A program made the position numbers and the translations under genes. DNA of 37,623 nucleotides, from positions 1 through 37,623 of IMG/VR virus record IMGVR_UViG_3300028734_000007; one strand, 5' to 3'. The notes below the pieces were generated by a model. That model was given only the letters and a program-made list of their open reading frames with translations. It was not told the DNA's origin and did no database searches. Each line of letters opens with the position of its first letter. The stretch's first letter is position 1. This document shows positions 1,750 to 35,246 of the stretch, one piece after another. Origin of the DNA: a virus.

Positions 1750-2334
1750 ATGAAACATTTCAAATTAACATCAGAGACAAAGGTAAATTTTTTAGGCAAA
1801 ACGCTATTTAGAATCGAATTAATCACTGATTGCAAATGGGGTAAAATTGGAGACAAGGGAGGATTTTTAGAAAAAGAAGAAAATCTGTTCGGTGATGCAT
1901 GGGTGTCCGGTAATGCAAGGGTGTTCGGTGATGCAAGGGTGTCCGGTGATGCAGAGGTGTTCGGTGATGCAAGGGTGTTCGGTGATGCAGAGGTGTTCGG
2001 TAATGCAAGGGTGTTCGGTGATGCAAGGGTGTTCGGTAATGCAAGGGTGTTCGGTGATGCAAGGGTGTCCGGTGATGCAGAGGTGTTCGGTAATGCAAGG
2101 GTGTTCGGTGATGCAGAGGTGACTAAAAAAGTTTTTATTTTAAATTTCTGCTATAATCTCACATTAACAGATTACCATATCATATTTGGCTGCGAAATAA
2201 AAACGGTTCAAGAATGGGAGGATTGGTTGAAATCAGGTCAAATAATTAATACTCCAAGGTCGGATAAAAAATTTAAGATTATTGAAATGAGTTTGAATCT
2301 TGCAATCGAGCAGTGGAAACAATTAAATAGCTAA
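1750..2334 (+). CDS. Hexapeptide-repeat (left-handed beta-helix-like) protein, 194 aa
   Basis: Residues 1-47 form a small N-terminal domain containing CKWGKIGDKGGFLEKEENL. They are followed by 13 uninterrupted six-residue units of the type G-[DN]-A-[RE]-V-[FS] at about residues 48-125, and then by a 70-residue non-repetitive C-terminal domain. Six-residue periodicity with small and aliphatic residues in fixed positions is the signature of a left-handed parallel beta-helix. Similar GDARV-type proteins are common in phage accessory regions without known function. The repeats are nearly identical at DNA level (18-bp units, 1891-2124), pointing to recent expansion. No catalytic residues of hexapeptide acyltransferases are visible. 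Confidence 0.8.
   Translation: MKHFKLTSETKVNFLGKTLFRIELITDCKWGKIGDKGGFLEKEENLFGDAWVSGNARVFGDARVSGDAEVFGDARVFGDAEVFGNARVFGDARVFGNARVFGDARVSGDAEVFGNARVFGDAEVTKKVFILNFCYNLTLTDYHIIFGCEIKTVQEWEDWLKSGQIINTPRSDKKFKIIEMSLNLAIEQWKQLNS
1891..2124 (+). repeat. 13 tandem 18-bp coding repeats
   Basis: There are thirteen consecutive 18-bp units, based on GGTGATGCAAGGGTGTTC, within the hexapeptide-repeat gene. Variation is almost confined to GAT/AAT, AGG/GAG and TTC/TCC choices, so units are 80-100 percent alike. Because the unit is a multiple of three, unequal crossing-over changes length without frameshift. The same tract keeps long false ORFs open on both strands. Confidence 0.95.
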
Positions 2335-33862: not shown

Positions 33863-33884
33863 AAGTTGTTAATAAATTAATTAG

Positions 33885-33915
33885 CAAAGTAAATAAAAGA
33901 TTTTGGAATATGCAA
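33885..33915 (-). promoter_or_regulatory. Promoter of the terminase operon
   Basis: On the minus strand TTG (33915-33913), a 20-base spacer and TTACTTTG (33892-33885, seven of eight matches to TAnnTTTG) precede the terS ATG by 22 bases. Confidence 0.65.
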
Positions 33916-33948
33916 CAAAAAAGGTGTAAAGTTGTGAATATTTTGGTA

Positions 33949-33978
33949 GGGTGGGGATGATTGGGGGATGATTTAGGG
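33949..33978 (+). other. G-quadruplex-forming motif
   Basis: Four guanine runs (GGG 33949, GGGG 33953, GGGGG 33963, GGG 33976) are separated by 1, 6 and 8 bases. It stands out in an AT-rich region, 30-60 bases upstream of the terminase promoter. Confidence 0.6.
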
Positions 33979-33988
33979 TAATTAGAGG

Positions 33989-34024
33989 TATGCAAGAAAT
34001 GAATTATCTATGCAAGAAATGAAT
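33989..34024 (+). repeat. Two tandem copies of TATGCAAGAAATGAAT
   Basis: Identical 16-base copies lie at 33989-34004 and 34009-34024, with a 20-base period. They include the ATGCAA hexamer that recurs through the region. Confidence 0.85.
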
Positions 34025-34158
34025 GTTAATTTTCCATTTATTGCATAATTGTTAAAAAAACAGGGATGTTTTGCAATGATTGCAATTTTAAAAGAAGAAA
34101 ATTAAGTGAAAATAATTAAGTAAAGAATGTTAATGAGGTAAGAAAATGGGTCAAAAAA

Positions 34159-34453
34159 TTAACTACCATGCAATAAATTGGAGTTGAAAAAAATTTCCTA
34201 CATAGCAAAAGGGTGTTTTTACATAGTTTTTTAACTACCATGCAAGTTTTAAAATGGCTTTTTACATAAAGTTTAAAATATGTAAATTTGTAATTGACTA
34301 ATATATAGGTATATAATACTTTTGATATACTGTTTTTTAACTAATATGTAATAAATAGGGATAATTGAAATAGCTAATGGGATTATGTTAATCGTTATTA
34401 ACATATAGGCTTTTATAGAGTTTTCAAACTACTTGCATTTGCATATTAGTTAA
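34159..34453. repeat. Iteron-like repeats, consensus TTAACTAnnATGcAA
   Basis: Copies are at 34159-34173 and 34231-34245 (TTAACTACCATGCAA, identical), 34337-34351 (TTAACTAATATGTAA) and, inverted, 34439-34453 (TTGCATATTAGTTAA). A degenerate copy lies at 34294-34308. A T run or A/T-rich run precedes most copies. Confidence 0.75.
34384..34405. repeat. Perfect 9-bp inverted repeat
   Basis: TATGTTAAT (34384-34392), a four-base loop CGTT and ATTAACATA (34397-34405) lie midway between the third and the inverted iteron copies. It may be a protein-binding dyad or an unwinding element. Confidence 0.8.
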
Positions 34454-34614
34454 AAAAAATATTACAAAGTAGCTATATCAGGTAGTTAGCTTTTTATTTA
34501 ACGTTTGTTAATGCAAGAATGGCTTTTTCGGTATGTAAAAGTTGCATGAGCATGGAAATAACTTGCATGGGGTATAATTCTACATTTTTATTTTATTTTT
34601 AAAATAATATTTTG

Positions 34615-34622
34615 TATCTTTG
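34615..34622 (+). promoter_or_regulatory. -7 promoter element TATCTTTG
   Basis: TATCTTTGC matches TAnnTTTG. Transcription would start near 34628, exactly before the first hairpin of the leader. No TTG is found at -33. Confidence 0.6.
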
Positions 34623-34629
34623 CTTTTAA

Positions 34630-34706
34630 TAATTGCGATCTCACAAAGCAATTAAAAAATTTAAAAGCACCTTTTCATTTATCGGGTAGTGAGATCCTCG
34701 ATTTTT
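34630..34706 (+). ncRNA. Structured leader RNA with hairpin-terminator loop complementarity (candidate)
   Basis: Hairpin 1 is TAATTGC (34630-34636) / GCAATTA (34648-34654) with loop GATCTCACAAA. Hairpin 2 is AAAAG / CTTTT (34663-34675). Hairpin 3 is ATCGGG / CCTCGAT (34681-34702, one bulge) with loop TAGTGAGAT, followed by five T. The loop of hairpin 1 (GATCTCAC, 34637-34644) is the exact complement of GTGAGATC at 34689-34696, in the loop and closing edge of hairpin 3. A separate AGCACC (34666-34671) / GGTGCT (34712-34717) pairing reaches towards the HNH start codon. It is either an attenuating leader or a small terminated RNA of about 80 nt. Confidence 0.5.
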
Positions 34707-34729
34707 GGGTTGGTGCTATTTTTATTATT

Positions 34730-35062
34730 ATGAATACAAGAAAAATTTACGGTTTTATTTTATGGGAAAAGTGGAAAATAATACCAACGTTTGAAAACGA
34801 CTATAAATGTAGTACGCTTGGCAATGTAAAATCTATCAAAAAGTATGGTAATAGATTAGAAAGAGTTTATAAAAAATCAATAGGGTGGGGAGGATATAGG
34901 ATATCTCTTAATAAGGATGGAATATATGGGACATATACTATACATTTATTAGTCGCATTAACTTTTTTAAATTACTCTTCCTTTTACCAAAAATCGTATA
35001 TAAAACACAAAGATGGTAATAAACTAAAAAACTATTTAAGTAATTTAGAAATAGTATTTTAA
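34730..35062 (+). CDS. NUMOD4/HNH homing endonuclease, 110 aa
   Basis: WKIIPTFENDYKCSTLGNVKSI is the NUMOD4 DNA-binding motif. GYRISLNKDGIYGTYTIHLLVALTFL followed by IKHKDGNKLKNYLSNLE is the HNH_3 nuclease core, with His in IKHKDG and Asn in the NYLSNLE helix. Relatives usually continue with NLEWVT and a further DNA-binding tail; this one stops right after NLEIVF, so it is a minimal or clipped copy. Homing endonucleases of this kind spread themselves between phage genomes. It is preceded by the structured leader and ends 67 bases before the next promoter. Confidence 0.85.
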   Translation: MNTRKIYGFILWEKWKIIPTFENDYKCSTLGNVKSIKKYGNRLERVYKKSIGWGGYRISLNKDGIYGTYTIHLLVALTFLNYSSFYQKSYIKHKDGNKLKNYLSNLEIVF

Positions 35063-35128: not shown

Positions 35129-35157
35129 TTTTGTGTAGTTCTTTTTATGTATGTTTG
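35129..35157 (+). promoter_or_regulatory. Promoter of the radical SAM / methyltransferase / helicase operon
   Basis: TTTTG (35129-35133), a 16-base spacer and TATGTTTGC (35150-35158) fit the Bacteroidota consensus closely. Transcription would begin around 35163, at the first hairpin of the leader. Confidence 0.68.
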
Positions 35158-35163
35158 CATCGC

Positions 35164-35219
35164 TTTAGGATCAAGCCTAAATACCCATATAATAAGCCGA
35201 ATGAATGATTCGGTTTTTT
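35164..35219 (+). ncRNA. Short leader with hairpin plus terminator (candidate attenuator)
   Basis: The first hairpin is TTTAGG (35164-35169) / CCTAAA (35176-35181). The second is CCGAAT (35197-35202) / ATTCGG (35208-35213), followed by six T (35214-35219), a canonical intrinsic terminator. It lies between the promoter and the radical SAM start codon at 35247, so full-length transcription requires read-through or antitermination; otherwise a ~57-nt RNA is released. Confidence 0.6.
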
Positions 35220-35246
35220 ACCCACTTAATTTTAACATATTGTAAA

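What the first reader, a model, noticed from the sequence alone, without database searches (positions are those of the whole stretch)
34615..34735. Leader RNA upstream of an HNH gene with loop-to-terminator-loop complementarity
A TATCTTTG promoter is followed by three hairpins ending in a T run. The apical loop of the first hairpin (GATCTCAC, 34637-34644) is the exact 8-base complement of GTGAGATC (34689-34696), which occupies the loop and first closing base of the terminator-like hairpin. An additional 6-bp pairing, AGCACC/GGTGCT, extends to within 13 bases of the HNH ATG. An 8-base perfect match between two loops is unlikely by chance in this AT-rich setting. It suggests a kissing-loop or pseudoknot switch that controls termination, or a self-contained ~80-nt RNA linked to the homing endonuclease. 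RNA structures that restrain homing endonuclease expression are known in T4-like phages, but I do not recognise this one.
Basis: partly seen in the sequence, partly recalled or inferred. Interest (0 to 1): 0.75.

Follow-up and report, generated by a model that had tools for sequence, protein, structure and literature searches.

The report
Self-kissing terminator leader before phage nucleases
A short RNA in front of a phage DNA-cutting enzyme gene folds so that two of its loops pair with each other inside a built-in stop signal; the same design, with different but always matching loops, precedes homing endonuclease and DNA-replication genes in many phages of Flavobacterium-type bacteria, and no catalogue or paper searched here describes it.

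Summary
The window leader has a TATCTTTG promoter-like box, hairpin P1, and a terminator-like hairpin P2 enclosing hairpin P3. An exact 8-bp pairing joins the P1 and P3 loops. The U-run ends 6 nt before the HNH ATG. In the nearest relative with different loops (L005, flanks ~92% identical) six of the eight loop bases changed on each side, all compensated. Unrelated-gene searches found the same layout in dozens of Bacteroidota-phage loci, including cultured Flavobacterium phages hattifnatt9-1 and FCL-2: more than 20 different loop sequences, all perfectly complementary, strong covariation of all four helices, no Rfam match. Downstream genes are mostly homing endonucleases of several unrelated families, plus helicases, a RecT-like and a replication-initiation protein. 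It is nearly absent from Flavobacterium chromosomes. Best reading: a phage cis-acting leader, a promoter plus an intrinsic terminator stapled by an intramolecular kissing loop, that holds down expression of the next gene. Structure and covariation are shown by comparison; transcription, termination and regulation are inferred. The window copy matches by architecture but not by the sequence-based model, so descent from the main group is not shown.

The parts
34615..34622 (+). promoter-like box TATCTTTG (Bacteroidota -7 type, TAnnTTTG)
   Evidence: the same box (mostly TATATTTG) stands about 12 nt upstream of P1 in the relatives, but TATATTTG or TATCTTTG was part of the search patterns; promoter activity not tested
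34630..34654 (+). P1 hairpin TAATTGC-GATCTCACAAA-GCAATTA, predicted at the 5' end of the RNA
   Evidence: AATTGC stem kept in L005; P1 covaries in the wider group
34637..34644 (+). kissing partner 1, GATCTCAC (GAGTCGAA in L005)
34655..34665 (+). unpaired A/U-rich linker (11 nt here and in L005; mostly 17-21 nt in the relatives)
34666..34717 (+). P2 terminator-like hairpin, arms AGCACC 34666-34671 and GGTGCT 34712-34717 (GCCC/GGGC in L005)
34681..34702 (+). P3 hairpin nested in P2, ATCGGG-TAGTGAGATC-CTCGAT
   Evidence: P3 covaries in the wider group
34689..34696 (+). kissing partner 2, GTGAGATC (TTCGACTC in L005)
34719..34723 (+). U-run after P2, predicted 3' end of the short RNA
   Evidence: U-run follows P2 in the relatives
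34730..35062 (+). 110-aa NUMOD4/HNH endonuclease gene, ATG 6 nt after the U-run
   Evidence: Pfam NUMOD4 E=1.1e-6; PHROG phrog_59 HNH endonuclease E=1.7e-19

Best explanation
The element is a phage-borne cis-acting leader. Transcription starts just after the TAnnTTTG box. The first ~25 nt fold into P1, an A/U-rich linker follows, and then P2, an intrinsic terminator whose large loop holds the weak hairpin P3. The P1 and P3 loops form a 7-8 bp intramolecular kissing helix. P3 alone is barely stable, so I infer that the kiss staples P3 shut, brings the arms of P2 together and makes termination efficient, releasing a compact ~80-95 nt RNA with paired ends. Only read-through transcripts reach the gene, whose ATG lies directly behind the terminator, so the endonuclease (or replication protein) is made at a low, possibly adjustable, level; upstream read-through would be stopped as well. 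Only complementarity is selected, so the loop sequence drifts in compensated steps. Shown by comparison: the four helices, the kissing pair, the U-run and the position before start codons. Inferred: promoter activity, termination, the stapling role, low expression, and whether anything regulates it.
For: (1) Window versus L005: loops GATCTCAC/GTGAGATC and GAGTCGAA/TTCGACTC in otherwise ~92% identical DNA; P2 and P3 also changed with pairing kept. (2) 21 distinct relatives: 97% of cells paired against 75% in column shuffles (0/500) and 45% or less when slid; kissing helix 100% paired, with double changes in 3 of 7 pairs. These members had mostly been picked by pattern, a few by a loop-match scan upstream of HNH genes. 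(3) The covariance model R2 holds no kissing information, yet all 15 of its hits inspected, weak ones included, carry 6-9 nt loop or tail complementarity. (4) A sequence-independent architecture scan of 3.66 Mb gave 50 distinct hits, none in the unrelated pattern-match loci. (5) L413 and L452 differ at 3 positions, two of which are one compensated pair of the kiss. (6) Kissing segments are 61% GC against 29% in flanks; P3 alone has median -0.9 kcal/mol, P2 -8.6, kissing duplex -9.9. (7) U-run to ATG mostly 4-15 nt.
Against: No transcript, terminator or expression data. The window and L005 are not found by R2 even at E=5 and have a longer P1 loop and shorter linker, so they could be convergent. 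In several members P1 is weak or absent and a 5' tail pairs with the terminator loop instead (L496, L498). The element also precedes non-nuclease genes, so holding down a toxic nuclease cannot be the whole reason. No alternative (antiterminated) fold is evident, so a switch is not indicated by structure. Kissing-loop energies are duplex approximations.
Confidence: 0.6

Rival explanations
1. Trans-acting barcoded RNA: the terminated ~90-nt RNA accumulates and its loops kiss the matching leader on other transcripts or on a co-infecting phage, as in antisense copy control or phage immunity RNAs; loops diversify to change specificity.
For: Loops change while flanks stay the same; most contigs with several copies carry different loops.
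Against: Both partners lie in one molecule, favouring the intramolecular pair. Linker length is clustered (17-21 nt in most), as expected for a tether. My rough count of same-contig pairs shows no clear avoidance or sharing of loops. No separate targets were sought.
Confidence: 0.15
2. Translational or stability leader: P2 next to the start codon limits ribosome access and the kissed structure protects the mRNA 5' end; the U-run is incidental.
For: ATG lies 4-15 nt after the U-run. RNA hairpins restrain homing endonuclease translation in T4-like phages (PMC2988022).
Against: U-runs directly behind a GC-rich P2 are kept although P2 sequence varies (CCCGCAA/TTGCGGG, CCACCAA/TTGGTGG, AGCACC/GGTGCT). 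A leader acting only on translation would not need them.
Confidence: 0.15
3. DNA-level operator: the two loop segments are an inverted repeat bound by a phage or nuclease protein, and the hairpins are incidental.
For: GATCTCAC and GTGAGATC also form a spaced inverted repeat in DNA; T4 intron endonucleases repress their own promoters from operators (PMC2988022).
Against: P1, P2 and P3 covary independently of the repeat and a U-run follows; the same layout precedes genes for unrelated proteins.
Confidence: 0.05
4. The window's pairing is a chance match and unrelated to the other leaders.
For: Loose loop matches are common in this window; R2 misses it.
Against: Compensated change in L005; full architecture at 1 per 300 shuffled windows and at a lower score.
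Confidence: 0.03

Closest known systems
RNA hairpins upstream of T4-like homing endonuclease genes (I-TevI/II/III, segB, mobE; PMC2988022)
   Same: structured RNA directly before a phage homing endonuclease gene, thought to keep expression low or late
   Different: those sequester a Shine-Dalgarno site; here a terminator-like hairpin ends 12 nt before the ATG, and the hallmark is a covarying loop-loop pair
Intrinsic terminators inside T4 mobE and segF (PMC2988022)
   Same: intrinsic termination reduces endonuclease transcripts
   Different: those lie within the coding region and no kissing partner is described
pT181-type transcription attenuators (PMC4878617, abstract only; details from own knowledge)
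   Same: loop-loop pairing linked to formation of a terminator in a leader
   Different: pT181 uses a separate antisense RNA; here both loops are in one leader
Intramolecular kissing-loop RNAs such as purine riboswitches and phi29 pRNA (own knowledge)
   Same: loop-loop helices shape the RNA
   Different: different topology; no ligand core; here the kiss links a 5' hairpin to the inside of a terminator and its sequence is hypervariable
Candidate structured RNAs of Bacteroidetes phages in human microbiomes, e.g. HMP_4078 (PMC8040213)
   Same: phage-linked RNA candidate in Bacteroidetes
   Different: palindromic, near D5 and integrase domains, not predicted to hold a terminator; that paper's text mentions no kissing loop or pseudoknot

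Membership tests
Kissing-loop terminator leaders of Bacteroidota phages (defined here) | TAnnTTTG box shortly before P1 | tested here: met
   TATCTTTG 34615, P1 at 34630
Kissing-loop terminator leaders of Bacteroidota phages (defined here) | 7 nt or more exact complementarity between P1 loop and P3 loop, kept by compensatory change | tested here: met
   8 nt; fully compensated in L005
Kissing-loop terminator leaders of Bacteroidota phages (defined here) | P3 nested in a GC-containing P2 followed by a U-run | tested here: met
Kissing-loop terminator leaders of Bacteroidota phages (defined here) | start codon of a phage gene directly behind the U-run | tested here: met
   6 nt to the HNH ATG; in relatives mostly 4-15 nt
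Kissing-loop terminator leaders of Bacteroidota phages (defined here) | match to the covariance model R2 (shared descent by sequence) | tested here: not met
   window and L005 absent at E<=5
Any Rfam 15 family | score at or above the gathering threshold | tested here: not met
   none in the window or 19 related loci; permissive searches give only weak sub-threshold hits
T4-type RBS-sequestering endonuclease hairpin | ribosome binding site buried in the hairpin stem | tested here: not met
   P2 ends 12 nt before the ATG and no Shine-Dalgarno-like sequence lies between
IscB/OMEGA (HEARO) RNA-guided nucleases | large HNH/RuvC nuclease with a long guide RNA | tested here: not met
   110-aa protein with only a NUMOD4 Pfam match
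Antisense-controlled attenuator (pT181-like) | antisense RNA encoded opposite the leader | not tested
   no transcript data; opposite strand not examined for promoters

The most novel reading that the evidence does not exclude
A previously unrecognised regulatory RNA class in which each copy carries its own self-matching loop pair and acts in trans as well, so that phages of one host group hold sets of mutually insulated RNA-controlled genes, and homing endonucleases of unrelated folds travel as RNA-plus-nuclease cassettes.
Probability: 0.15. Interest if true: 0.9.

Novelty: new variant of a known kind. Interest (0 to 1): 0.74.

Why it matters
It gives phages of Bacteroidota, whose gene regulation is little studied, a recurrent leader RNA with an unusually clear covariation signal. 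It links one RNA design to homing endonucleases of several unrelated families and to replication genes, which makes a general question testable: how free-standing homing endonucleases are kept from harming their phage. Two carriers, hattifnatt9-1 and FCL-2, have cultured hosts. The natural set of matching loop pairs could also inform the design of orthogonal RNA parts.

Tried and rejected
Short blastn matches in Chryseobacterium phage MA9V-2 and Flavobacterium phage MaF61 lay in other contexts. Terminase relatives at 44-71% identity showed no leader of this layout upstream. Model R1 was built on a misplaced structure and dropped; R2 replaced it. Genome searches in Flavobacterium found one pattern hit in 300 genomes, which by its matched sequence looks spurious, and one R2 hit in 150; that hit (L503) has lost the loop match. 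Some weak R2 hits are opposite-strand echoes of strong ones and were ignored. Loop sharing among copies on one contig was counted by hand only and was inconclusive. Literature searches found no description of this RNA; preprints and most subscription journals are not in that library.

Full report
The observation. The sequence at 34615-34730 is as described, with two corrections. The hairpins are P1 (34630-34654) and P2 (arms 34666-34671 and 34712-34717), with P3 (34681-34702) nested inside P2. P1 loop GATCTCAC and P3 loop GTGAGATC are exact complements. The U-run that matters follows P2 (34719-34723), six bases before the ATG of a 110-aa NUMOD4/HNH gene. A loose scan shows that 7-8 nt loop matches alone are common in this AT-rich window (27 found). 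The complete layout is not: one hit in the real window at score 37, one hit at 27.5 in 300 dinucleotide shuffles.

Nearest relatives. Four IMG/VR contigs are identical over this region. L005 differs: its flanks are about 92% identical, but the leader block is diverged, and its loops read GAGTCGAA and TTCGACTC, again an exact 8-base match at the same places. P2 becomes GCCC/GGGC and P3 also changes with pairing kept.

Wider group. Reading upstream of 80 NUMOD4-HNH loci showed the same layout in several. A pattern with a TATATTTG box and a TCCCG...CGGGTTTT terminator, with no requirement on loops, gave 63 IMG/VR loci; of the 64 pattern matches in them about 55 have a 6-8 nt match between a 5' segment and the terminator loop, in many different sequences. 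A TATCTTTG version gave 30 loci, about ten of them members. Among 49 aligned segments there are 20 distinct kissing sequences, all perfect.

Statistical tests. On 21 distinct members, 97.0% of cells pair against 75.4% in column shuffles (0 of 500 as high), covariation score 0.569 against 0.158, and slid controls stay at or below 0.091. The kissing helix is 100% paired with two-sided changes at three of its seven pairs. That set was chosen mainly by patterns that demand the promoter box and the terminator arms, and a few members came from a scan that did look for loop matches, so two further tests matter more. Model R2 contains P1, P2 and P3 but no kissing information; all 15 hits inspected, several of them weak, have 6-9 nt complementarity, although in L496 and L498 a 5' tail rather than a clear P1 loop is the partner. 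A scan for architecture alone over all 3.66 Mb then held gave 50 distinct hits, every one of this layout, with none in unrelated pattern-match loci, and the window ranked first. L413 and L452 differ at three positions, two of them a compensated pair of the kiss.

Distribution and genes. Cultured carriers are Flavobacterium phage hattifnatt9-1, with a copy before helicase gp034 and one before the NUMOD4 endonuclease gp041, its relatives, and the unrelated phage FCL-2, before a replication-initiation protein. Some contigs carry up to four copies. Of 59 distinct downstream reading frames I count 38 as homing endonucleases by motif or family: NUMOD4-HNH, GIY-YIG, HNH of other PHROG families, and one endonuclease VII-like. 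Part of that set came from HNH-anchored searching, so the fraction is not an unbiased estimate. The rest include helicases, a RecT-like protein, a hexapeptide-repeat protein and small unknown proteins. The element is nearly absent from Flavobacterium chromosomes.

Mechanism. The kissing segments are 61% GC where flanks are 29%; by nearest-neighbour estimates P3 alone is near zero (median -0.9 kcal/mol), P2 alone -8.6 and the kissing duplex -9.9; the linker is 17-21 nt in most members. I infer that the kiss holds P3 closed and so helps the large-loop terminator P2 to form. This would give a short stable RNA and little read-through into the gene whose ATG follows at once. No transcription data support this yet. 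No alternative antiterminator fold is evident, so a regulated switch is possible but not indicated.

Known systems. No Rfam 15 family matches the window or 19 related loci. T4-like phages restrain homing endonucleases with RBS-sequestering hairpins and with terminators inside the genes (PMC2988022); this leader differs in place and in its self-kissing loops. Fremin and Bhatt's microbiome RNA survey mentions no kissing loops in its text (PMC8040213). I file the window element as the same architecture as the new group; shared descent was tested with R2 and not shown.

Noticed in passing
window 35146-35240: A second TAnnTTTG-like box, hairpin (TTTAGG-ATCAAG-CCTAAA) and terminator (CCGAAT...ATTCGG-TTTTTT) stand before the radical SAM gene; this stretch is conserved in L005 although the radical SAM gene itself was not found there. 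No loop-loop match seen.
   Followed up: partly
window 34848-34946 (HNH residues 40-72): Between the window and L005 the middle of the HNH protein is strongly diverged while both ends are 100% identical in amino acids; a second diverged block next to the diverged leader.
   Followed up: no
L323, L350, L330, L392, L314 upstream of HNH genes: A possible second design: the loop of a hairpin inside the terminator-like hairpin is complementary to sequence after the U-run, just before the ATG (e.g. GCAGTTA with two downstream copies of TAACTGC in L392).
   Followed up: no
L496, L498, L508: Variants with weak or no P1, where the 5' tail itself (CCTCTTAC; 11 nt in L508) matches the terminator loop.
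   Followed up: partly
L503 (Flavobacterium genome G171): A chromosomal R2 hit whose promoter box and loop match look decayed, perhaps a prophage remnant.
   Followed up: partly
window 33863-34614: About 750 bp without long ORFs between divergent terminase and HNH genes, with repeated ATGCAAGAAATGAAT-like and TTGCAT-containing motifs; function unknown.
   Followed up: no
window 1750-2334: ORF with many tandem FGDARVFGDAEV-type repeats, resembling a hexapeptide-repeat protein.
   Followed up: no
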